From a virus: a DNA stretch of 24,620 nt. The notes beneath the pieces were generated by a model. The model was not told the origin of the DNA and made no database searches. It saw only the letters and a list, made by a program, of their open reading frames with translations. Location: the IMG/VR virus record IMGVR_UViG_3300027708_000284, positions 1 through 24,620 of that record; one strand, 5' to 3'. Made by a program: the position numbers and the translations under genes. Below, piece after piece: positions 2,964-23,480 of the stretch (position 1 is the first letter of the stretch; each line of letters starts with the position of its first letter).

Positions 2964-3163
2964 TGGCAGCGACTCCGAGGGTGGGTTCTCGGGTCCGGTA
3001 TCGTAATGGGTCGGGTCGGATCACGTCTGCTCGGGTCTTATCGGTTGTCGGATCGACGGTGACGTTGCGGGGCGGATCTAAGGGTAATGGTGCTGATGTT
3101 ACGTCGGTGACGAAGCAGACTGGTAAAGGCAGTAGTGCCGGATGGGTGCGGGGTGGACGATGA
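2963..3163 (+). CDS. Small SH3-like protein of unknown function
   Basis: 66 residues. An overlapping GTG at 2960 is in frame, but the ATG at 2963 sits six bases after GGGAGG and overlaps the terminase stop as TGATG, so it is preferred. The sequence is short basic beta strands (VGSRVRYRNGSGRITSARVLSV, then GSTVTLRGG), like a small SH3-type barrel that ends in a Gly/Lys/Arg tail. Similar small barrel proteins accompany phage head genes, but I cannot name a family. It is coupled to large terminase in front and overlaps the histidine-rich gene behind, so all three are one translational unit. Confidence 0.7.
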   Translation: MAATPRVGSRVRYRNGSGRITSARVLSVVGSTVTLRGGSKGNGADVTSVTKQTGKGSSAGWVRGGR

Positions 3164-3774
3164 GTATTCTGGTCCATGATGGTGGGGAACCGAACCCGTT
3201 CGAGTCAGCCTATAGCGGGGTTGTCAAGGCGAACCCGACCGGGATCAACCAATACACCGCGCATACCGCTCACGTCGCTCACACCACACACCAAGCGAAT
3301 GTGGCAGCAGGCGCTGCAGCGGCACACTCTAAGCATGAAGCACATATGGCGCATCTGGCTCACGAGGCGCACGTTCGCCATATGGCGATGAAGCATGGTG
3401 AAGGATCGAAGGAACATAAGGCCGCGCAAGCGAAGAAACCGAAGAAACCGAAGACGGTGACCAAGGCCGCGATGACCCCGCCGCAAGGGGTGCAAGATGC
3501 TGCAGCCCGCGCCCTGCAATGGATCGCCGATGGGAAAGCGGGAGACGGATTCACCAGTGTCGGTAAGATCCGGGCTCAACAACTCGCCGCTGGTGAGACG
3601 ATCAGTGCCGACACGGTTCAGCGCATGAGTTCCTATTTCGCTCGCCATGCAGTCGATGGGCAGGCCGACGGTTTCAACGCTGGCGATCCGGGTTACCCGT
3701 CACCGGGTCGTGTGGCGTGGGATGCGTGGGGTGGCGACGCTGGTCGAGCATGGGTGAAGACGCTCACTCAGTAG
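3160..3774 (+). CDS. Histidine-rich phage protein with NPTGINQYT peptide and C-terminal unknown domain
   Basis: 204 residues from the ATG at 3160, which overlaps the previous stop (ATGA); an in-frame ATG at 3142 lies inside the upstream gene. There are three parts. Residues 23-33 contain KANPTGINQYT, a peptide repeated almost exactly in the Dps-zeta protein (19836). Residues 35-87 are a histidine-rich helix with HxxH spacings (HTAHVAHTTH, HMAHLAHEAHVRH), able in principle to bind metal ions. A Lys/Pro linker (KKPKKPK) leads to residues 108-204, a domain with RMSSYFARH, GYPSPGRVAWDAWGGDAG. I recall that last domain, with unknown function, in many phage head-region proteins. It is the last gene of the rightward terminase operon and its end overlaps the convergent gene by 11 bases. 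Confidence 0.8.
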   Translation: MSILVHDGGEPNPFESAYSGVVKANPTGINQYTAHTAHVAHTTHQANVAAGAAAAHSKHEAHMAHLAHEAHVRHMAMKHGEGSKEHKAAQAKKPKKPKTVTKAAMTPPQGVQDAAARALQWIADGKAGDGFTSVGKIRAQQLAAGETISADTVQRMSSYFARHAVDGQADGFNAGDPGYPSPGRVAWDAWGGDAGRAWVKTLTQ

Positions 3775-13224: not shown

Positions 13225-14673
13225 ATGGCACCACGCCCGGATCTAACTGAAATTGGTTCGACAGGTTTACGTCGCGCAGGCGGAACTGTATTTGAAGAGT
13301 TCCTCAACAACCTGCGCGGAATTCGTGGTGTCCGCGTCTACCGGGACATGGCCGACAATGATCCGGTCGTCGGCTCGATCCTGTTCGCGATGGAGAAAGT
13401 CATCACCCGCCTCGAATGGCGCGTCGACCCGTTCGTTGATCCCGGCGAAGAAGGCGACCCGAAAGATCCCGATGCCGAGACCGCCGATTTCGTCGAATCC
13501 TGCCTAAACGACATGTCCGACTCATGGGATGTGACCCTCTCCAGCATCCTGTCGATGCTCACCTACGGATGGGCATATCACGAGATCGTTTACAAGAAAC
13601 GAGTCGGCCCCGAACAGGACGATCCCACTAAACGCAGCAAATACACCGACGGCAAGATTGGGTGGCGTAAATGGCCCACCCGATCACAGGACACCCTCGT
13701 CTGGTGGGTGTTCAGCGACGACGGTGGCATCCGAGCCCTCGAACAGCAGGATCCAGCCACCGGGGGACGCCACACCATCCCCATCGAGAAAGCCCTCCTG
13801 TTCCGTACCCATTCACAGAAAAACAATCCCGAGGGTCGTTCCCTGCTCCGCAACGCTTACCGCCCGTGGTGGTTCAAACGTCGCATCGAAGAGATCGAAG
13901 CCATCGGTATCGAACGCGATCTCGCGGGCCTACCCATCGCCTACGTGCCACCGGAATACTTGTCCAGCACCGCCACCGATGAGCAACGTGCCGTCCTCGC
14001 CGCCATCGAACAGATCGTGCAAAACGTCAAACGCAACGAGCAGGAAGGTCTAGTCTTCCCCACCCAATACGATGACAACGGACATAAACTGTTCGACCTC
14101 GTGCTGCTGTCTGCTGGTGGGGCTCGACAATTCGACACCGACAAGATCGTGTCCCGATACGATCAACGCATCGCCATGTCAGTGCTCTCCGATTTCATTC
14201 TCCTCGGACATGAACGAGTCGGATCCTTCGCGCTCGGCACCGCGAAAATGGATCTCTGGTCGATGGCCGTAGATGCGATTGCTAAATCCATTGCCGAAGT
14301 CATCAATCAGCATGCGATCCCACGCCTGCTCCGATTGAACGGGATGGACTCATCCCGCCCACCACGGCTCACCTATGGTGAAGTGTCTCATGTGGATCTG
14401 GGTGAGATCAGTGACTTCGTATCGAAGATGAGCAGCGCCGGGGTGATCGCCTCAGATCCGAACCTCGAAGATTACATGCGAAACATTGCCGGTCTCCCCC
14501 CGGCAGAACATAATGCCGACACGACCGGGGCAGTGGATCCGGCTCAAGCCCTCCAACCCCCGACCCCCGATACGCAGGGCAGCGCACAAGATGCGAACCC
14601 GCAGGACACGAGCCCGGACTCGACACCACCACCACCGGATAAGGGACAGCCTCCAGCGAAGCCCGCGAAGTGA
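13225..14673 (+). CDS. Portal protein (DUF935 / Mu gp29-like)
   Basis: 482 residues, ATG with GAGGGGCAGCGC before it. Residues about 35-260 contain YRDMADNDPVVGSILFAMEKVITRLEW, MLTYGWAYHEIVYKKR, RSQDTLVWW and GRSLLRNAYRPWWFKRRIEEI, typical of the DUF935 portal group. The family forms the dodecameric ring at one head vertex through which terminase packs DNA. The last 60 residues are Pro/Asp/Thr-rich and probably disordered. It stands four bases before the MuF gene, as usual, but is unusually far from large terminase. Confidence 0.9.
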   Translation: MAPRPDLTEIGSTGLRRAGGTVFEEFLNNLRGIRGVRVYRDMADNDPVVGSILFAMEKVITRLEWRVDPFVDPGEEGDPKDPDAETADFVESCLNDMSDSWDVTLSSILSMLTYGWAYHEIVYKKRVGPEQDDPTKRSKYTDGKIGWRKWPTRSQDTLVWWVFSDDGGIRALEQQDPATGGRHTIPIEKALLFRTHSQKNNPEGRSLLRNAYRPWWFKRRIEEIEAIGIERDLAGLPIAYVPPEYLSSTATDEQRAVLAAIEQIVQNVKRNEQEGLVFPTQYDDNGHKLFDLVLLSAGGARQFDTDKIVSRYDQRIAMSVLSDFILLGHERVGSFALGTAKMDLWSMAVDAIAKSIAEVINQHAIPRLLRLNGMDSSRPPRLTYGEVSHVDLGEISDFVSKMSSAGVIASDPNLEDYMRNIAGLPPAEHNADTTGAVDPAQALQPPTPDTQGSAQDANPQDTSPDSTPPPPDKGQPPAKPAK

Positions 14674-14676
14674 CCT

Positions 14677-15711
14677 ATGGGTCTTGTCATCAAAGGGAAA
14701 ATCCCTCGGATCAAAGCACTCGACGCCGTTGAACAGGAACTCGCCAATGTCCTAGCCCGCTTGATGCGGAACACGGGCAAAGCAGTTGACTGGGATGCGA
14801 TTGCTGTAGCGATCACGAATCGGGATTCCGATGCGATCAACCGGATGGTAACCGGGTTGAAGTTCGCCGCTACCGGGGTGTGGAGTGATCTAGAAAACCT
14901 GCTACATGATGTACTGTCACAATCTGGTGCAGCGGAAGCGTCAGCCATCCGTAACGTGATCGCCTCAACATTCTCATGGGGCACAGATAATACGATCACC
15001 GGACAACCGAGCGTACCGTTTCGTTTCGATCAGACCGAACCGAATGCGATGCGGTGGGCACAGATGCGAGCCGCACAACTGGTCACCAGCATCGACCAGT
15101 CCACCGAGGAATCAATCAAACGAATCATATTTGAATCGTTCAAGGAACAGATCACCGGAGTCGACACCGCGACCCGGCTCCGCAACATCATCGGTCTGCA
15201 TCCACGCTGGGCCTTAGCGGTGAACCGTTTCGCGACCACCGAATACAATCGACTCCGCAACGCCGGGATCCCTCATGCTCAAGCGTTGGCTCAATCACAA
15301 GCCGCCACCGAACGCTACCGACTCAAACTGATCCGGGCCCGAGCCACGATGATCGCTCGCACCGAAATCATGACCGCCTCCAACATGGGACGACAAATGT
15401 CATGGTCACAGGGAGCCAATCAGGGGTACGTCGATCCAACCTCGATGAAACGCTGGTCAACCTCAGCAACCTTGGCCGGGTTGAAAGATGCTAAACGTGG
15501 CGTGTGTGATCGCTGTCGTCCGATGCGTAATGAGATGGTGCGGATAGATCAACCGTTTAGTAACGGTTTGATGATGCCACCGGCTCATCCGCATTGTCGT
15601 TGCACGGCAGCCCTCGTCCCACCATCGCGGGGATTGACAGGGTTACCGTCACAGAATCTGGATGCGGTTGTGGCCGAGTTAGGGTCGACATCAGCGGACG
15701 TAGCATCATGA
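14677..15711 (+). CDS. MuF-like minor head (head morphogenesis) protein
   Basis: 344 residues. The C-terminal third has RARATMIARTEIMTASNMGRQ, CDRCRPMRNE and finally PAHPHCRCTAALVP (HPHCRCT at 304-310), the hallmark of the MuF/SPP1 gp7 domain. MuF proteins sit inside the head near the portal, and in some phages a toxin is attached at the C-terminus. Here the protein ends 34 residues after the motif, and the next gene, overlapping by four bases, encodes the multi-domain effector-like protein. The N-terminal 150 residues are helical. The start ATG has no ribosome site; translation may couple from portal. Confidence 0.9.
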   Translation: MGLVIKGKIPRIKALDAVEQELANVLARLMRNTGKAVDWDAIAVAITNRDSDAINRMVTGLKFAATGVWSDLENLLHDVLSQSGAAEASAIRNVIASTFSWGTDNTITGQPSVPFRFDQTEPNAMRWAQMRAAQLVTSIDQSTEESIKRIIFESFKEQITGVDTATRLRNIIGLHPRWALAVNRFATTEYNRLRNAGIPHAQALAQSQAATERYRLKLIRARATMIARTEIMTASNMGRQMSWSQGANQGYVDPTSMKRWSTSATLAGLKDAKRGVCDRCRPMRNEMVRIDQPFSNGLMMPPAHPHCRCTAALVPPSRGLTGLPSQNLDAVVAELGSTSADVAS

Positions 15712-18515
15712 GCGTCGTTGTCAAGTTCAACCCCAATCATGATGCTCGTGGCAGGTTCGGATCTGGCGGTACGGGTGGCAGCGGGGAAACTCATGCCGTG
15801 ATGCGTGGCGTGGCGATGAACCTACCGGCGGGCAAAGCCGACGAGGTACATCGCCTACTGCAACCACCACAATCAGAGAGCGAGATCGATCAACACTTCG
15901 CAGCGGGAAAAATCCTCCTCGACGAATTTGTGAACCGTGGCGGTGGACAACACTGGACAGGTTCATCTCGTGGGATTGCAGAAATCGGTGCCGGGGCTCG
16001 TGCGGGTGGAACTCATGTGCCCGTCATCGTTCATGCCACCTATTCCGGTCCACGTTTCGCTGCAGGTCGGTCAACGATTCATGATGAAGATGAACACACC
16101 ATCCCACCCGGTACACATATGCGGGTGACAGGGATCGAAGTGAAAACTGCTGATGGTTGGGTTCAAGTGTTGAAAGATCCGCACGACATCGTGCTCGGAC
16201 AGACCGTCACCAAATCCGTGGTGGTCCGCACCCCGATGCTCAAGCATCCCGGTCATCCTGATCAGAAGGTACATGGACGCCGACATGCCACAACAGTCAA
16301 CCCCGCCGTGGCATCAAAAACAATGGAGATGGTCCGCGAAAACGGTGGCCTATCAATCAAAATGACCGACGGCTCTGAACCACCATCGGGTTACATGGTC
16401 GCCCGCAATTCAACAAAATTCGGTACAGTCGTAAGTGCCCAAGATTTCTATGATCCAGTACAGGGACCACGTATCCTCGCCGATCATCTCAACAATAATC
16501 GTTCCGAACTCGGTTCAGGTCGTGCCTATCTTGGTGTCTGGCATCAGAAACAGGAGCAAGGCCCAGATGGGAAAATGCGAGATCTACCCTTCGCCGAACA
16601 GAAGGTGCATCTCGATGTGACCGACATGATCGTGGACAGGGAACAGGCTGTTAGACTAGGTAGACGACGCAACCAGATCAGCGTATGGGATGTAGCCAAT
16701 TTTGATGAGATCGCGACTGGAGGAACGGGTGGAGAAGTCAGTAAACGAACCATTGAAGGTTTCAGTGACGCCGAAACCGTTGACTCAAATGTCATACGAC
16801 GAGATCCTGCAGTGGGCCACCGAACAATGGACGGTGCTCGCAGCGGATCAGCAGTCGTCTTCTTCCCCGTAGGTAAGCATGGTCATCATGATCAGAAGAC
16901 ACACGGTCGTCGAGCCGGAACTCGGATGGCCGGTATCGCCGATGATGTGATGGCCGGTAAGCCCGTCACCATCGAACCAGCCGACGTGAAAACTTTACTC
17001 ACTCATCTATCGGCTCGTGACGGACAACCTGACCTGACGAATGTGACAGTGATCGGGCATGAAGGCAAAATTTTTGATGCCCCGAACATTGGTGTTCCTC
17101 GCAGTGGGATGCCGCAAGTGCCATCGAAAATGAAACCTGAATTCGTTGATTCGATGGCTCGTGATGGTTATCGGGTGACAAGGGAATCCGTTGACCCATT
17201 GTCGTTGAACATTGTGCAGGCCGAGATCAGTGGCAAACTATCTGGTCAAATTATGGAAGCATCTGATCGCACTGGCCCACCTCAAACGGATAAGGCCCGG
17301 ATCATCATCTCCTCCGATGGTTACGTGTTGGATGGTCATCATCGGTGGGCTGCTGTAGTCGCGTTGCATTTGGCGGGTGATTCTCGTGCCGCCGACATTC
17401 CTGTGTTCCGTTTAGATGCGACCCGTGATCAGGGTTTGAAGATTCTGCATCAATGGGCTAATGAGCATAATGTTGAAAGTTTGGGCATGGGAGAGACGCA
17501 AAATTCTCGTGCTGCAAACAAGTCGGTGGTGGTGAAGTTTAATCCGCATCATGATAGTAAGGGCCGGTTCGGTACGGGCGGTACGGGTGGTGGGGCTGCG
17601 GCTGGTTCGGTGAAGGAGCGGGTCGCTGCAGCGCAAGATTCTGGCGATCCGATGGGATTGGATTATTCACCGAATATGCAAGAAAAGTTTGATGCCTATG
17701 TGGCGAACCCTGATCAACGTACAGAAATGGGATTGCAACTTGCGGCCTCAGCGAATGCTTACACTGCAGGGTTGCGTGGTAATGATTCCGACTACTGGTC
17801 GATGGCGGTGCAAGGTCGAGCGTACAACGCTATTGATCAGAATAAGCATTGGGATACGCAGACTGATCAACAGAAAGCAGACACTCTCTCCGGTGTCAAT
17901 TTCGTGAGACAGAACGGTACTGTATGTGTCGCGGCTCCGATGGATGCATCGATTGGAGCATTAGAGGATGGTCGTTTCAAATCTCAATTTGAGACTGGTT
18001 CATCGCGTGGCTATCTCGATGAGCAGGTTCGTTCGGTGCAAGAGACTGCCATGTTCGATACGCATCCGAGCATGGCGGTTGATCGGCGGCCTATCTACGG
18101 ATTCGTCTCATTGAACGCTGACCATACAACTGCTGGTGTTGGGCAATATGGTGAAGTACGGTTCGTGTTGAAACCTCATGCTCGGGAACGTACCACGATG
18201 ACTGTTGGTGATTCGTTGAGTACCCGAGCAACACCCGTACCGATGAATGGGACGATCACGGCTCGTCAAGCACACGATGCGTGCGCGATTCGTTATGGGA
18301 CAATGCATAATGCTGAGGTTGTGCAGTCTTTCCCGACGATCACATCGTTTCATTCCCGAGAATACTTCGAGGCTCAGATTCATCATGGGGTGTCGATGGC
18401 TGATGTGGCTGAGATTCATGTTGATGGTGGAGAAAGTGATTTCTCGTCGTCGACGGTGAGGAACTTGCGGGACGGGGCTGCTCGACATGGTATCCCTGTC
18501 ATCTTCCACGAATAA
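15708..18515 (+). CDS. Multi-domain polyvalent-type protein: ART-like, unknown, ParB-like and DUF3626-like domains joined by peptide tags
   Basis: 935 residues from the ATG overlapping the MuF stop. Domains in order: 5-24 peptide VKFNPNHDARGRFGSGGTGG; 30-160 ADP-ribosyltransferase-like (MRG at 32-34, QHWTGS at 81-86, DEDEHTIPPGTHMRVTGIE); 179-192 peptide KHPGHPDQKVHGRR; 195-342 a phage domain of unknown function (GYMVARN, YLGVW, GRRRNQISVWDVANFDEIATGGTGG); 390-402 peptide KHGHHDQKTHGRR; 410-595 ParB/sulfiredoxin-like domain with LDGHHRWAAV (541-550); 606-628 second peptide KSVVVKFNPHHDSKGRFG; 633-935 DUF3626-like domain (RRPIYGFVSLN, YGEVRFVLKPHARERTTMTVGDS, EAQIHHGVSMADV). Such proteins are thought to enter the host with phage DNA. 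The segment 353-388 may be frame-shifted. Domain activities are inferred. Confidence 0.8.
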   Translation: MSVVVKFNPNHDARGRFGSGGTGGSGETHAVMRGVAMNLPAGKADEVHRLLQPPQSESEIDQHFAAGKILLDEFVNRGGGQHWTGSSRGIAEIGAGARAGGTHVPVIVHATYSGPRFAAGRSTIHDEDEHTIPPGTHMRVTGIEVKTADGWVQVLKDPHDIVLGQTVTKSVVVRTPMLKHPGHPDQKVHGRRHATTVNPAVASKTMEMVRENGGLSIKMTDGSEPPSGYMVARNSTKFGTVVSAQDFYDPVQGPRILADHLNNNRSELGSGRAYLGVWHQKQEQGPDGKMRDLPFAEQKVHLDVTDMIVDREQAVRLGRRRNQISVWDVANFDEIATGGTGGEVSKRTIEGFSDAETVDSNVIRRDPAVGHRTMDGARSGSAVVFFPVGKHGHHDQKTHGRRAGTRMAGIADDVMAGKPVTIEPADVKTLLTHLSARDGQPDLTNVTVIGHEGKIFDAPNIGVPRSGMPQVPSKMKPEFVDSMARDGYRVTRESVDPLSLNIVQAEISGKLSGQIMEASDRTGPPQTDKARIIISSDGYVLDGHHRWAAVVALHLAGDSRAADIPVFRLDATRDQGLKILHQWANEHNVESLGMGETQNSRAANKSVVVKFNPHHDSKGRFGTGGTGGGAAAGSVKERVAAAQDSGDPMGLDYSPNMQEKFDAYVANPDQRTEMGLQLAASANAYTAGLRGNDSDYWSMAVQGRAYNAIDQNKHWDTQTDQQKADTLSGVNFVRQNGTVCVAAPMDASIGALEDGRFKSQFETGSSRGYLDEQVRSVQETAMFDTHPSMAVDRRPIYGFVSLNADHTTAGVGQYGEVRFVLKPHARERTTMTVGDSLSTRATPVPMNGTITARQAHDACAIRYGTMHNAEVVQSFPTITSFHSREYFEAQIHHGVSMADVAEIHVDGGESDFSSSTVRNLRDGAARHGIPVIFHE

Positions 18516-18522
18516 ACTAGGG

Positions 18523-18535
18523 TAGGATAAGACTA
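18523..18535 (+). promoter_or_regulatory. Possible -10 of a leaderless transcript
   Basis: TAGGAT (18523-18528) lies seven bases before the ATG at 18535, and no ribosome site exists there. A leaderless mRNA starting at the ATG would fit. No convincing -35 is present. Confidence 0.35.
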
Positions 18536-19626
18536 TGAATCCGGGAGATATCATCGCCACCCGACAAGGGGGCTGGCTACTCATTTACGACGGAGTAGCC
18601 GACGGGCTCGACACCGGACATGTCGTCGACCCCAAGGGTCGCGCCTTCCCCTCCCAATACGTTGCCGCTATTGCAGCCCGAGGCTACTGGGAGTCCGTCA
18701 CCCCCACCACCAAATCAGTGATCGTAATCAAGCATGAACGTCACGATCAAAAAACACATGGCCGAGGACGTAGCATTGCCAATGTTCCCGGCGGAGCGGG
18801 ATCAACACGACCAGCCAGCGCAGATGATATTGCACGCATTCAAAGCGAGCACGGCTATAAGGTGCCAACGCATTGGGTCGAAGCCCATGTCCCTACCGAT
18901 TCAACGTCGGGGCTCGTCGTCAAAGGTGTCGACGCTAAAGGTAAAACGCATTATGTGTATTCAGCGTCGCATGTGGATTCTCAATCGGCGATCAAGTTTG
19001 CACGAGTCAAAGAGATGAATGAAGCAATGCCAAAATTGGATTCTGCGCTTGCTCGTGATTTGCACCCGGATCGCATGAATCCTGATGCGATTGCCGTGGG
19101 CATCATGCGACATACCGGATGTCGAGTTGGAGATGAATCGGCTGTTCGTGGCCGGTTAGTTCGAGATGCTACTTACGGCGCAACAACGCTTCGGGCCAAG
19201 CATGTAACGGTCAATCCATCGGGTTCTGTGACCTTAGATTTCGTCGGCAAAGATGGTGTCAGACAGAAACTGTTGATCAAAGATCCCGTGTTGGCCGCTG
19301 CAATCACAAAACAAAAGGGGGATAAGAAGGGTAATGACAGGATTTTCCCTGATTCGGTTAACAACAATTCGACGATGAAATATTTGCGAGACGCTACAGG
19401 TTTGCCTCACGCGAAGAATCATGATTTGCGTACTCACATGGCAAACTCTGTCGCCTTAGCGTCGAAGGGAACTCGCAAACCGAAGACCCGTAAAGAGTTC
19501 CGGGAGAAAAGGAAAGCAATCGGGGAGAAAGTCGCGAAACAATTAGGAAACACACCTGCGGTAGCATTGGGAACATACATCAATCCGATAGTTTTTGCTG
19601 ACTGGATGCAACCGGGGTGGGAGTAA
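18535..19626 (+). CDS. Type IB DNA topoisomerase with KHERHDQKTHG peptide
   Basis: 363 residues. Residues 1-55 are a small beta domain (GDIIATRQGGWLLIYDGVADG). Residues 66-78 hold the peptide KHERHDQKTHGRG shared with neighbouring proteins. Residues 100-363 are a topoisomerase IB: RVGDE (R197), LDFVGKDG (K239), HDLRTHMAN (R299) and LGNTPAVALGTYINP (Y348, predicted to form the 3'-phosphotyrosyl link). The family relaxes supercoils of both signs without ATP. Phage copies are rare relative to viral and bacterial ones. It is not a tyrosine integrase: LGNTPAV..YI.P is specific to topoisomerase IB. Its place among head genes and its tag suggest packaging in the virion, which is inference. Confidence 0.88.
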   Translation: MNPGDIIATRQGGWLLIYDGVADGLDTGHVVDPKGRAFPSQYVAAIAARGYWESVTPTTKSVIVIKHERHDQKTHGRGRSIANVPGGAGSTRPASADDIARIQSEHGYKVPTHWVEAHVPTDSTSGLVVKGVDAKGKTHYVYSASHVDSQSAIKFARVKEMNEAMPKLDSALARDLHPDRMNPDAIAVGIMRHTGCRVGDESAVRGRLVRDATYGATTLRAKHVTVNPSGSVTLDFVGKDGVRQKLLIKDPVLAAAITKQKGDKKGNDRIFPDSVNNNSTMKYLRDATGLPHAKNHDLRTHMANSVALASKGTRKPKTRKEFREKRKAIGEKVAKQLGNTPAVALGTYINPIVFADWMQPGWE

Positions 19627-19766
19627 TGTCTGAACCTGTAGATTTCAATATAGCCGTAGGCGATGCTGCACTCGACGATTTCTTCAACACCGTCGAACTA
19701 ATCGACATCCCGTTCACGAGCATCCCCGATGCCACCTATGATGAACCAGAACCAGATGATCTGTAG
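19626..19766 (+). CDS. Small acidic protein of unknown function
   Basis: 46 residues, read directly. The ATG overlaps the topoisomerase stop (TAATG). It reads MSEPVDFNIAVGDAALDDFFNTV and ends in DEPEPDDL, with a strongly negative charge and no lysine or arginine. It lies just before the Dps-zeta gene. An antitoxin-like or DNA-mimic role is conceivable, but no sequence motif supports it. Confidence 0.6.
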   Translation: MSEPVDFNIAVGDAALDDFFNTVELIDIPFTSIPDATYDEPEPDDL

Positions 19767-19835: not shown

Positions 19836-22232
19836 ATGAGTGAAGCCGTGTCGGCAACCCTCGTCGATCTCGACGATGTGGATCTAGTCGAAACGCACCA
19901 CCGTCTAGATAAGTCAACCGACTACTCATCGGCGACGGTAATGGCGCATCATCTGGTCACCGCCGAGATGCTGCGACGTGGCATGACTCATGGACATACC
20001 GATGATGGCTGGTCGAAACTGGTCATCGAAGTAGAGAAAACTTTCGCTGTTCCCGTGGCCGAGATCACCAGCGACATGCCCGAGCCCGTCGCCCAAGAGG
20101 TCACCGCCGAGGTCGGAGAGTATGCCGATGTTACGACACTGCTCTCGGTTGAAGGTTACGCGATGCGTTTCGATAAGGCGCAGGTCGACGATCCGCCGGT
20201 CGTGCAAGAAGCCTTAGATGAATATGATCAGGTTGAATCTGAAACCGAACCACCAGAAGATCTCGCCGACACTCTCAACGAATTACTATCCGGGGTTGTC
20301 ACCCTCTACTTTCAAGCGCACGGCTACCACTGGAATGTGACCGGCCCCAACTTTACGCAGTATCACATCCTGTTCGAGGAAATCTATACCGACACCTACT
20401 CCTCGATTGATCCGTTAGCCGAAAACATTCGTAAACTCGGCGGCTTCCCGAACTGGCGTCTGCGCGATTTCTTCGGCATGTCTGAGATCGAAGAATCTGA
20501 TGTGCTCGAAGGTGAAGCCGAAGAGTTGGTTCCCGAACTGCTCGCCTCGACCGTGGTCCTGATCGAAGAATTGAATGAAGCATTCGACGCGGCCATCGCC
20601 GAGAATCAGCAGGGCATCGCTAACTTCATTGCCGAACGAATCGACGCGCACCAGAAATGGGCATGGCAGTTACGTGCCTCGCTATCTGATTCGGCATGGC
20701 AAGCGTTGGATGATGCAAATGGGGAGTCGATTCTCGCTACTCTCACCGATGCCACTTACAAGTCCACCGAGCGCGTCGAAAAGTTTAACCCGACCGGCAT
20801 CAACCAGTACACGCACGGTGGACATGCCATCGGATCGATGTCTCGTGGTGAGACCCGACGTATCGGTGGATCGTTAGGCAAACGATCAGCCGCACTGCAT
20901 TACAACGAAGGATACGACCGGGCCAAGCAGCACATGAGTGCAGGCGGCAAGCCGCAGGTGCGTGAACATATGGGGCATCTGGCGCGGGCTCGTGCGGGTC
21001 ATGCGAACGCTCAAAGTCATATGGAGCGTCAGACTCATGCTGAACATGCGGTGCATTCGGCTGGATATTTAGATGCAGTCGCCGGTCGTAAGCGTTCGAT
21101 CCGTCGGCCCCTGTTCGGCACTAACGTGATGGATTACGCGACAGCGACAAAGGCCAGTGAGCAGGAGCCGGTAGTTAAGCATCCCGGACATCCGAGCCAG
21201 AAGGTACATGGCCGTCGCGCTGGTGCCAATGGCATATCAGATCAACAACGTGAGGGTGTTGCTGCCGGTATCGAGTTTGGTCGTGGTGAGGAAGGTGCGC
21301 CGAAAACTCTGGAAGAGTTTAAGACTCGCACTGCGAGTATCGCTCAACCCGAACCGGGTGTGTACAGTCCACGTCCGGGGCAACCTGATCCTCGATACCC
21401 AGATAAACCTGAAACAATCATTATCCATGATGGTTTCGAGAACGTAGAAATTAATAACACCCAGTCGTTGTGGCATCACATGGAGCCTGATGGTAAGGGT
21501 GGATGGCAGGTTTCTGCTGAACGTCAAGCCCTACATCGTGAGATCTCCGAACAGATGATTGGTGGCCCTCCGCCTGCTGGTCGTGGTAATCCTCCATCGG
21601 TTGAACATCCGACTGCTACGTTCCTCGGTGGTGGCCCTGCCGCCGGTAAGACAACGATGGAGAAAGATCCGAATTCTGGTATTCAGCCTCGTGATGAGCG
21701 GGTCACTATCGCCGCTGATCATGCGAAGTTTGCTACCCCTGAATACATCCAGATGGTTCATGAAGGAAGATCAGATGTGGCGGCTGGTTTCACCCATGAA
21801 GAATCATCATACATCGCTAAACAGGCTCAAGGATTGGCAGCGTCTCGTCGTCAGAGCATGGTCATTGATGGGCTAGGCAATTCAAGTGAAGAGAAGTTGA
21901 CTCGTAAAGTTGAGAATTTGCGTCAAGACGGTTATCGAGTTATCGGACGTTACGCAACTGTTCCAACAAATGAGGCAGTTCGGCGTGCTGGCGAACGGGG
22001 AAAGAAGACCGGCTTCAATGTGCAAGAGAGGGCCGTGCGAGAAGGCCATGTCGGAGTGTCACGGGTTGCTCCTAAATTGCCGAAGATTTTCGATGACGTT
22101 GAGGTGTATGACACTTCGGGTGGGGGTAAGCCGGTACTGATCGCTCGCGCTACTCGCGGAAGTGCATGGAGTGTCGATAATTCGACGGGCTGGTCAGCGT
22201 TCCTAGCGAAAGCGGACGAGCCGACCACCTAA
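19836..22232 (+). CDS. Dps/ferritin-like domain fused to a zeta-toxin-like kinase, with shared peptide tags
   Basis: 798 residues, ATG with GAGGAG upstream. 1-140: variable region with a small helical domain (ATVMAHHLVTAEMLRRG). 142-285: Dps-type four-helix domain; YHWNV (H165), QYH (H177), and IDPLAENI (D192, E196) match the ferroxidase ligands. 316-326: KFNPTGINQYT, as in the protein at 3160, followed by a His-rich helix (366-410). 448-461: KHPGHPSQKVHGRR. 588-775: zeta-like kinase with Walker A GGGPAAGKTT (598-607), THEESS (653-658), VIDGLGNSS and YDTSGGG. Zeta toxins phosphorylate UDP-N-acetylglucosamine and poison wall synthesis; Dps oxidises iron and protects DNA. I know no standard protein with this fusion. 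No epsilon antitoxin is recognisable nearby. Confidence 0.85.
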   Translation: MSEAVSATLVDLDDVDLVETHHRLDKSTDYSSATVMAHHLVTAEMLRRGMTHGHTDDGWSKLVIEVEKTFAVPVAEITSDMPEPVAQEVTAEVGEYADVTTLLSVEGYAMRFDKAQVDDPPVVQEALDEYDQVESETEPPEDLADTLNELLSGVVTLYFQAHGYHWNVTGPNFTQYHILFEEIYTDTYSSIDPLAENIRKLGGFPNWRLRDFFGMSEIEESDVLEGEAEELVPELLASTVVLIEELNEAFDAAIAENQQGIANFIAERIDAHQKWAWQLRASLSDSAWQALDDANGESILATLTDATYKSTERVEKFNPTGINQYTHGGHAIGSMSRGETRRIGGSLGKRSAALHYNEGYDRAKQHMSAGGKPQVREHMGHLARARAGHANAQSHMERQTHAEHAVHSAGYLDAVAGRKRSIRRPLFGTNVMDYATATKASEQEPVVKHPGHPSQKVHGRRAGANGISDQQREGVAAGIEFGRGEEGAPKTLEEFKTRTASIAQPEPGVYSPRPGQPDPRYPDKPETIIIHDGFENVEINNTQSLWHHMEPDGKGGWQVSAERQALHREISEQMIGGPPPAGRGNPPSVEHPTATFLGGGPAAGKTTMEKDPNSGIQPRDERVTIAADHAKFATPEYIQMVHEGRSDVAAGFTHEESSYIAKQAQGLAASRRQSMVIDGLGNSSEEKLTRKVENLRQDGYRVIGRYATVPTNEAVRRAGERGKKTGFNVQERAVREGHVGVSRVAPKLPKIFDDVEVYDTSGGGKPVLIARATRGSAWSVDNSTGWSAFLAKADEPTT

Positions 22233-22289: not shown

Positions 22290-23480
22290 ATGACGGAAAT
22301 AGATTTCGAGCAATGGGCACGAGACAATCGTGACGATCTAGTCAGCGACGGTAACAACGTGATCCCGTTTGAAGGCGGAGCAACCAGTTGGGAGGCAGTG
22401 TTTGCACCCAATCTTGCCGGTGAATGGGGAGCCGAAATTCTCGCTAAACTGAAAGAAAACAGGAAGAAATACGGGAACCAGAACACCATCGCAAAATCAG
22501 ACTCGGATCACCCTCGGCCTGAGAGCCAAGAAATGACACTTGTCTCGAAGGCCGACACCGAACGACGCTACACCCTCGGCCCAATGTACGTCCCGGACAG
22601 CCTCGACGCACACGCCGAATGGACCGACGCCAACGAACTACAGAAAGCGGTCTGGGAGTACGTCCGCAAAGGCGACCGACGGATCCGCCTACAACATGAT
22701 CGTGAAGTAGTCGCAGGCGAATTCGTTGAAGTGATGGCATGGCCCTACCCCGTCACCGTCCCCATGCAAAAATCAGACGGCAGCAGCGTCGACACCACCT
22801 TCCCCCAAAACACCGTATTCCTCGGAGTCGTCTGGGAACCGTGGGCATGGGAGATGGTGAAGAATCGGGAACTACGCGGCTACAGCATCGGCGGGAAAGC
22901 CCAACGAGTGTACGTCGACCTACCCAACCCCGATCCGGCAGATGTCGCCAAAGCCGCCAACAAATGCCCCATCGCCACCCACGATATCGGGGTGAACCTC
23001 GCGCATCGACAGAAAGCCATCGACACCGCACACTATGGACCGTTAGATCCTGCAGCACCCAACGCAAAATTTTGGCAAGCCAAAGCAGACATGTGGGATA
23101 TGAGTATCGTCGAGGCTCGTAAACCACGCTGCGGATCATGCGCCGCTTTCATCCGCACCCCAGCCATGATCGACTGCATCGAAACAGGATTAGCCGAGGG
23201 TGATACGGCTACGGATGCGTGGGGCACCGTCAATGCGGGAACATTAGGTTACTGTGAAGCATTCGATTTCAAATGTGCATCGAAGCGGACCTGTGATGCG
23301 TGGATCGCTGGCGGACCAGTCACCGAGGAGAAGATCACTAAATCTGATCCCGGAGTTGAAGCGGTCCATGTCGATACGATCATGAACCCGAAGAAGAAGA
23401 AACCGAAACTACCACCGGGGATCATGTCCACCGATCCGAAAAATTTGGGCACCGACAATACGGGAGCATCAAGTTCCTGA
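22290..23480 (+). CDS. XkdF-like prohead protease with cysteine-rich C-terminal domain
   Basis: 396 residues; the ATG follows GAGGAGGTGAAACGAG. Residues 88-208 are an XkdF-type prohead protease: RRYTLGPMYVPDSLDAHAEWT, IRLQHD (H136, probable catalytic histidine), VEVMAWPYPV, NTVFLGVVWEPWAWEMVKNRELRGYSIGG (S199, probable nucleophile). These proteases cut scaffold and capsid proteins during head maturation. Residues 226-341 are a separate domain with CPIATH, RCGSCAAF, DCIE, GYCEAFDFKC and RTCDAW: seven cysteines, possibly holding a metal or iron-sulfur centre. I recall this domain in other phage proteins with no assigned function. The tail is Lys/Pro-rich. Neighbours are the effector genes before and the scaffold after. 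Confidence 0.86.
   Translation: MTEIDFEQWARDNRDDLVSDGNNVIPFEGGATSWEAVFAPNLAGEWGAEILAKLKENRKKYGNQNTIAKSDSDHPRPESQEMTLVSKADTERRYTLGPMYVPDSLDAHAEWTDANELQKAVWEYVRKGDRRIRLQHDREVVAGEFVEVMAWPYPVTVPMQKSDGSSVDTTFPQNTVFLGVVWEPWAWEMVKNRELRGYSIGGKAQRVYVDLPNPDPADVAKAANKCPIATHDIGVNLAHRQKAIDTAHYGPLDPAAPNAKFWQAKADMWDMSIVEARKPRCGSCAAFIRTPAMIDCIETGLAEGDTATDAWGTVNAGTLGYCEAFDFKCASKRTCDAWIAGGPVTEEKITKSDPGVEAVHVDTIMNPKKKKPKLPPGIMSTDPKNLGTDNTGASSS

What the first reader, a model, noticed from the sequence alone, without database searches (positions are those of the whole stretch)
19836..22232. Dps ferroxidase domain fused to a zeta-toxin kinase
Seen: residues 142-285 keep the four Dps ferroxidase ligands (H165, H177, D192, E196), and residues 588-775 keep the zeta Walker A and THEESS motifs, in one continuous frame with two tags between. 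Known: Dps cages oxidise iron and shield DNA; zeta kinases poison wall precursors. Inference: an iron-handling or DNA-protecting module and a toxin travel together, possibly to be separated by proteolysis. I know no characterised protein of this design.
Basis: partly seen in the sequence, partly recalled or inferred. Interest (0 to 1): 0.72.

Follow-up and report, generated by a model that had tools for sequence, protein, structure and literature searches.

The report
Phage head-cargo polyprotein carrying Dps
A bacterial virus encodes, among its shell-building genes, one long protein that joins a cage-forming iron-oxidising domain (Dps) to a kinase of the zeta-toxin type; relatives show that such viruses repeatedly couple Dps to their head-maturation protease, which suggests that Dps is packed into the virus head as cargo rather than made only to protect the host cell.

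Summary
ORF 19836-22232 (798 aa) is one open frame with a Dps domain (residues 142-285) and a zeta-type kinase (about 526-795). It is not an assembly join: contig L310 encodes an ortholog (1006 aa) with the same order and tags, followed by the same two genes, and L312 encodes protease-Dps-tag-kinase in one frame. First, the whole protein is a head-cassette polyprotein: unknown N-domain, interchangeable slot (Dps here), tag, middle domain, tag, kinase, lying between MuF/portal and an XkdF head protease, scaffold-like gene and capsid. Its KHPGHPxQKVHG / HDQKTHG tags recur on MuF, portal, ADP-ribosyltransferase, topoisomerase and other phage proteins, and never fell inside an assigned domain (0/75). 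In contigs 97% identical to the window, the cargo changes at the tag. Second, the recurrent partner of Dps is the head protease: fused to an S78 protease in 49 contigs, to XkdF in 3, and beside XkdF in others. Best explanation: Dps and kinase are virion cargo, taken into the prohead, probably cut apart by the protease and delivered with the DNA. Packaging and cleavage are inferred. The kinase lacks the zeta residues that bind UDP-GlcNAc, so "poisons wall precursors" is unsupported.

The parts
19836..22232 (+). Dps-zeta cargo polyprotein, 798 aa
   Evidence: ortholog L310
19836..20195 (+). N-terminal domain (residues 1-120), confident alpha/beta fold, no PDB match; shared by head-cassette polyproteins
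20259..20690 (+). Dps (ferritin-like) domain, residues 142-285, ferroxidase ligands H165 H177 D192 E196
20781..20822 (+). tag 1, KFNPTGINQYTHGG (residues 316-329)
20823..21143 (+). middle basic/His-rich domain (residues 330-436), homologous to the inter-tag domain of L274/L277/L280 and L310
21177..21224 (+). tag 2, KHPGHPSQKVHGRRAG (residues 448-463)
21411..22220 (+). zeta/AvrRxo1-type P-loop kinase domain (residues 526-795)
21627..21653 (+). Walker A GGGPAAGKT (residues 598-606)
21792..21809 (+). THEESS motif (residues 653-658)
22290..23480 (+). XkdF-type head maturation protease (S78_2) with a C-terminal Cys-rich domain that is a separate gene in L257/L284
23818..24582 (+). scaffold-like head protein; homologs lie just upstream of the major capsid gene in Arthrobacter phages
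18535..19626 (+). topoisomerase IB cargo with tag KHERHDQKTHG; in near-identical L135 the tag and cargo after the N-terminal stub differ
15594..18515 (+). 973 aa multi-tag cargo protein (DUF3626 at its C end)
14677..15711 (+). MuF-like minor head protein
13225..14673 (+). portal protein
3142..3774 (+). small tagged cargo ORF (NPTGINQYT); cargo differs after the tag in near-identical L031

Best explanation
The ORF is a head-cassette cargo polyprotein of a tailed phage, probably of an actinobacterial host. Its N-terminal domain and tags bring it into the prohead. The head protease encoded 58 bases downstream (XkdF type) probably cuts it at or near the tags, freeing a Dps cage-forming module and a zeta/AvrRxo1-type kinase, which stay inside the mature head and enter the next host with the DNA. 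There Dps would remove iron and peroxide around the incoming genome, or bind it through the basic middle region, and the kinase would alter host metabolism by phosphorylating a small molecule, more likely a nucleotide or cofactor than UDP-GlcNAc. Shown here: domains, tags, gene order, recurrence, and exchange of cargo at tags. Inferred: entry into the head, cleavage, delivery and enzyme activities.
For: The gene lies between MuF/portal and protease/scaffold-like genes (relatives). The tag type is on MuF and portal proteins and on ADP-ribosyltransferase, PARP, SprT, HNH, GNAT, topoisomerase and zeta proteins. 102 of 119 tagged loci hold a head gene, and the tag is kept as peptide, not DNA (120 DNA versions among 233 tags). 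It is never inside an assigned domain (0/75) and is often within 60 aa of the N-terminus (65/119). Cargo differs from the tag onwards between contigs about 97% identical (L135, L031). The slot between N-domain and kinase varies: WGGD, ParB-like, Cys cluster, Dps. Dps is fused to an S78 protease in 49 distinct contigs (51 held loci), is in one frame with XkdF in L312, L325 and L355, and is next to XkdF or the scaffold gene in others. L310 has the same design, followed by XkdF and scaffold. Dps ligands are intact in 89/90.
Against: No virion proteomics. Cleavage at tags is untested. The S78-Dps phages lack the HDQ tag, so tag and Dps-protease linkage are separate phenomena, and a Dps fused to a protease could act as an assembly part. 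L312's Dps has lost two ferroxidase ligands. The Dps domain is very acidic (net -20), so DNA binding would depend on the basic middle region.
Confidence: 0.6

Rival explanations
1. Dps is a late-expressed auxiliary gene that protects the infected host cell (or phage DNA in it) from reactive oxygen; fusion to head genes is an accident of a mosaic late operon.
For: This is the published reading for stand-alone phage Dps or ferritin (PMC6669764, PMC8008677, PMC6802176). Thirty-nine of the loci held show Dps without a recognised head gene beside it.
Against: Fusion or adjacency to the head protease recurs in several arrangements and both orders (Dps before S78; S78-like region before Dps in L185/L212; XkdF before Dps in L312/L325/L355). 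In the window Dps lies inside a polyprotein whose tag type also occurs on MuF and portal proteins.
Confidence: 0.22
2. The Dps oligomer is a structural element of prohead assembly: a 12-mer core that clusters the protease or the cargo, with iron chemistry secondary.
For: Dps is fused or adjacent to the protease and scaffold genes, and L312's Dps has lost two ligands.
Against: Ferroxidase ligands are kept in 89 of 90 distinct domains; relatives with the same cassette show no Dps in the stretch held, though many records are fragments.
Confidence: 0.12
3. The zeta-type kinase is a classical toxin aimed at cell-wall precursors (UDP-GlcNAc), helping entry or lysis, with Dps a passenger.
For: Pfam Zeta_toxin E 5.8e-19; polyvalent-protein work proposes this for MuF-zeta fusions (PMC5512222).
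Against: UDP-GlcNAc contact residues of zeta (E100, T118, R120, T121, T128; PMC4938570) are not conserved; the best fold match is AvrRxo1, reported not to use UDP-GlcNAc; the R171 equivalent is Phe in the window.
Confidence: 0.1
4. Assembly artefact joining two genes.
For: The window comes from one metagenomic contig.
Against: Independent ortholog L310 with the same order; L312; in-frame homology on both sides of Dps.
Confidence: 0.01

Closest known systems
Polyvalent proteins and MuF-type phage toxins (Iyer et al. 2017, PMC5512222; PMC5576092)
   Same: Multidomain proteins encoded among virion genes, combining effector domains, including zeta-type kinases fused to MuF; thought to be injected with DNA.
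   Different: The text of PMC5512222 does not mention ferritin or Dps; here modules are bounded by short conserved tags, and Dps and the head protease are part of the set.
Stand-alone phage Dps (Lactobacillus phages PMC6669764; Gratiaviridae PMC8008677)
   Same: Dps-family domain.
   Different: Those are single genes explained as oxidative-stress protection; these are fused to or beside head-maturation genes.
T4 internal proteins with capsid-targeting sequences cut by the prohead protease
   Same: Short peptide, often N-terminal, on proteins believed to go into the head; protease in the same cassette.
   Different: No sequence relation tested; targeting and cleavage by the tags here are not shown.
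Encapsulins with ferritin-like cargo (e.g. PMC9321382)
   Same: Protein shell loaded with ferritin-superfamily cargo (HK97 fold of encapsulins from my own knowledge).
   Different: Phage head with DNA; Dps rather than the encapsulin ferritin-like proteins; no homology of loading peptides tested.
epsilon/zeta, PezT and AvrRxo1 kinases
   Same: P-loop kinase fold and core residues.
   Different: UDP-GlcNAc contacts not conserved; no antitoxin gene recognised nearby; here the kinase is the C-terminal domain of a cargo protein.

Membership tests
Dps (PF00210 / PHROG 3636) | Ferritin-like domain scoring over the family cut-off | tested here: met
   68.3 bits against 24.5; PDB Dps match E 1.9e-22
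Dps (PF00210 / PHROG 3636) | Ferroxidase ligands H, H, D, E | tested here: met
   H165 H177 D192 E196; 89/90 distinct domains
Dps (PF00210 / PHROG 3636) | Dodecameric cage | not testable with these tools
   no multimer prediction is on offer
Dps (PF00210 / PHROG 3636) | DNA binding (not universal in Dps) | tested here: inconclusive
   domain net charge -20; following region 316-440 net +11 with 11 His
zeta toxin (PF06414) | Family score over the cut-off | tested here: met
   68.7 bits against 22.3
zeta toxin (PF06414) | P-loop kinase core (K46, T47, D67, K70, R158 equivalents) | tested here: met
zeta toxin (PF06414) | R171 equivalent | tested here: not met
   Phe in the window; Arg in at least 90% of the 16 aligned; the role of R171 is from my own knowledge
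zeta toxin (PF06414) | UDP-GlcNAc contact residues E100, T118, R120, T121, T128 | tested here: not met
   read from the profile alignment to 1gvn; residue list from PMC4938570
zeta toxin (PF06414) | cognate epsilon-type antitoxin | not tested
   none recognised among the neighbouring genes scanned, not searched for specifically
polyvalent / head-cargo protein | several effector domains in one protein, encoded among virion genes | tested here: met
polyvalent / head-cargo protein | present in the virion and delivered | not testable with these tools
   needs proteomics

The most novel reading that the evidence does not exclude
A large group of uncultured tailed phages packs ferroxidase-competent Dps cages into HK97-fold heads, made in cis with the head protease or in a tag-bounded cargo polyprotein, and injects them with kinases and other effectors: a phage counterpart of encapsulins loaded with ferritin-like cargo, with a short portable peptide as packaging or cleavage signal.
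Probability: 0.38. Interest if true: 0.85.

Novelty: new variant of a known kind. Interest (0 to 1): 0.64.

Why it matters
Phage Dps has been read as a gene that protects the infected host. Its repeated fusion to head-maturation proteases makes a different, directly testable claim: that it is a virion protein. If so, phages carry iron chemistry or a DNA-protecting cage into the cell with their genome, and HK97-fold shells loaded with ferritin-fold cargo would exist in both phages and encapsulins. The portable tag, absent from the literature searched, offers a sequence handle to list the head cargo of many environmental phages and a possible signal for loading proteins into heads.

Tried and rejected
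Full-length alignment for structure prediction (A4) gave low identity for the N-domain and kinase rows (misaligned) and was not used; domains were aligned separately. PDB fold search of the N-domain gave nothing; the only significant viral hit was an unnamed 759 aa protein. NPTG.NQYT as a DNA pattern also hit unrelated proteins and only 7 of 37 such loci held head genes, so that tag alone is a weak marker. A genome-contig scan for Dps-S78 fusions found one, in a 4.7 kb metagenome-bin contig, so no host assignment came from it. No named phage record had Dps together with a protease or zeta in one match. I considered that the tag is a DNA recombination site only; 120 different DNA versions among 233 tags argue for selection on the peptide.

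Full report
OBSERVATION. The window is a 24,620-base virus record from IMG/VR. ORF 19836-22232 is open for 798 codons. Pfam places Ferritin at 145-284 (E 8.9e-19) and Zeta_toxin at 586-760 (E 5.8e-19). The Dps part matches solved Dps structures (8ff9, E 1.9e-22). The named ligands H165, H177, D192, E196 are present and are conserved in 89 of 90 distinct Dps domains collected. The kinase part was modelled (pLDDT 85, pTM 0.83); best PDB matches are AvrRxo1 (E 6e-10), zeta (6e-9) and PezT (5e-8). The two tags exist, at 316-329 and 448-463.

IT IS NOT AN ASSEMBLY JOIN. A profile scan with the kinase domain found 383 relatives, of which 80 were kept. Among them L310 (another metagenome) has a 1006 aa protein with N-domain, WGGD domain, Dps, tag KHPGHPDQKVH, middle domain, the same tag again, kinase; it aligns to the window protein over the N-domain (37%), Dps (48%) and middle-to-kinase (35%) and is followed by XkdF protease and scaffold-like genes as in the window. 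L312 has XkdF-Dps-tag-kinase in one frame. L325 and L355 have an XkdF-Dps ORF abutting a tagged kinase ORF.

ANATOMY. Residues 1-120 are a domain shared with many head-cassette proteins, confidently predicted but with no PDB match. Residues 323-459 are homologous to the inter-tag domain of L277, L274 and L280 (E 6e-10 for L277). L274 reads N-domain, Cys cluster, tag, middle domain, tag, kinase; in the window Dps stands where L274 has the Cys cluster, and in L274, L277 and L280 Dps is a separate gene after the XkdF protease. In other relatives the slot holds WGGD, WGGD-tag-ParB-like or the XkdF protease. So the Dps-zeta fusion is one arrangement of a conserved neighbourhood: kinase polyprotein, protease, Dps, scaffold-like protein, 130 aa protein, capsid protein. 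('WGGD domain' is my name for an unnamed domain ending in a VAWDAWGGDAG-like motif; 'ParB-like' is my reading of another, not a Pfam assignment.)

THE TAG SYSTEM. Of 57 tagged proteins scanned, 7 match ADP-ribosyltransferase, 6 DUF3626, 5 MuF, 3 zeta; others portal, PARP, topoisomerase IB, SprT, HNH, GNAT, HAD, XkdF. Tags are never inside a domain recognised by my HMMs (0 of 75) and the first tag is within 60 residues of the start in 65 of 119 ORFs with a complete start. 102 of 119 tagged loci hold a head gene; 233 tags use 120 different DNA spellings. Two contigs about 97% identical to the window show exchange at a tag: in L135 the ORF matching 18535-19626 keeps its first 60 or so residues and then has a different tag and cargo in place of the topoisomerase; in L031 the ORF matching 3142-3774 is the same through NPTGINQYT and then differs. 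No paper in the library holds the tag string.

DPS AND THE HEAD PROTEASE. A Dps profile scan found 353 relatives in viral contigs; the best 80 were kept, which favours forms like the query. Over all loci held, Dps is fused to an S78 prohead protease in 51 loci (49 contigs), is in one frame with XkdF in 3 (L312, L325, L355), lies near a head protease gene in 15 loci (several are the same contig), near scaffold or zeta only in 6, in other long ORFs in 7, and without a recognised head gene in 39. Pfam confirms S78 plus Ferritin in seven representatives at E 1e-37 or better for S78; in L185 and L212 a weak S78 match precedes Dps, the opposite order. In a tree the window Dps falls in a weakly supported group (87/94) with all the S78-fused Dps and the L122/L274/L280 copies, its place inside unresolved. 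Of 20 such S78-Dps records none carries the HDQ tag in a matching gene (one chance-like match), so tag and protease linkage are independent clues. Cultured kin by capsid protein are Arthrobacter phages Ottawa and Laroye and Microbacterium phage ValentiniPuff (55-61% identity); in Ottawa and Laroye the XkdF protease is fused to a 2H phosphoesterase, again an enzyme joined to the head protease.

KINASE. Zeta core residues K46, T47, D67, K70 and R158 have equivalents; the UDP-GlcNAc contacts listed in PMC4938570 do not. A profile match over nearly the whole domain and the best fold match are to AvrRxo1, reported to phosphorylate NAD (PMC5491322). A near-invariant Arg in the family, aligned with zeta R171, is Phe here, so this copy may be weak or altered. 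The substrate is open.

MECHANISM. Most likely (0.6) the protein is head cargo: tag and N-domain take it into the prohead, the neighbouring protease separates the modules, and they enter the host with the DNA. Shown: domains, gene order, recurrence, exchange at tags. Inferred: packaging, cleavage, delivery, activities. The strongest rival is the published one, a late host-protection gene; it does not explain why Dps keeps being joined to the head protease.

NOVELTY. Multidomain phage proteins with zeta-type kinases, thought to be injected, are known (PMC5512222). Dps as part of head-maturation proteins, and the tag that marks exchangeable head cargo, were not found in the literature searched. 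The library lacks most subscription papers, so this is not proof of absence.

Noticed in passing
L185:1864-6858, L252:1711-6933: 1664-1740 aa polyproteins with WGGD domain, repeated Cys/Trp segments, S78-like region and Dps in one ORF.
   Followed up: partly
window 22290-23480, residues 207-344: The XkdF protease carries a Cys-rich C-terminal domain that is a separate 144 aa gene in L257/L284 (64% identity).
   Followed up: partly
L011:3496-5781, L015:3592-5346 (similar start in L007, L016, L017): HAD-type phosphatase domain upstream of Dps in the Dps-S78 protease proteins.
   Followed up: no
L312:3-2033: Dps domain with two of four ferroxidase ligands lost (S-H-D-Q) inside an XkdF-Dps-tag-kinase polyprotein.
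   Followed up: yes
L285:7347-8486, L286:8840-9961: Genes annotated RNA ligase (Ottawa) and aldolase (Laroye) in Arthrobacter phages are 2H phosphoesterase-XkdF protease fusions.
   Followed up: yes
window 19626-19766: Small ORF overlapping the topoisomerase stop (taATG), between the topoisomerase and Dps-zeta genes.
   Followed up: no
L178, L180, L186, L190 and similar: Another group of phages with a stand-alone Dps placed on the strand opposite to a conserved set of genes (421, 147, 211 aa).
   Followed up: no
L072:1501-4767, L134:664-4176: Portal proteins with the HDQKTHG tag followed by a long Ala/Lys-rich tail.
   Followed up: no
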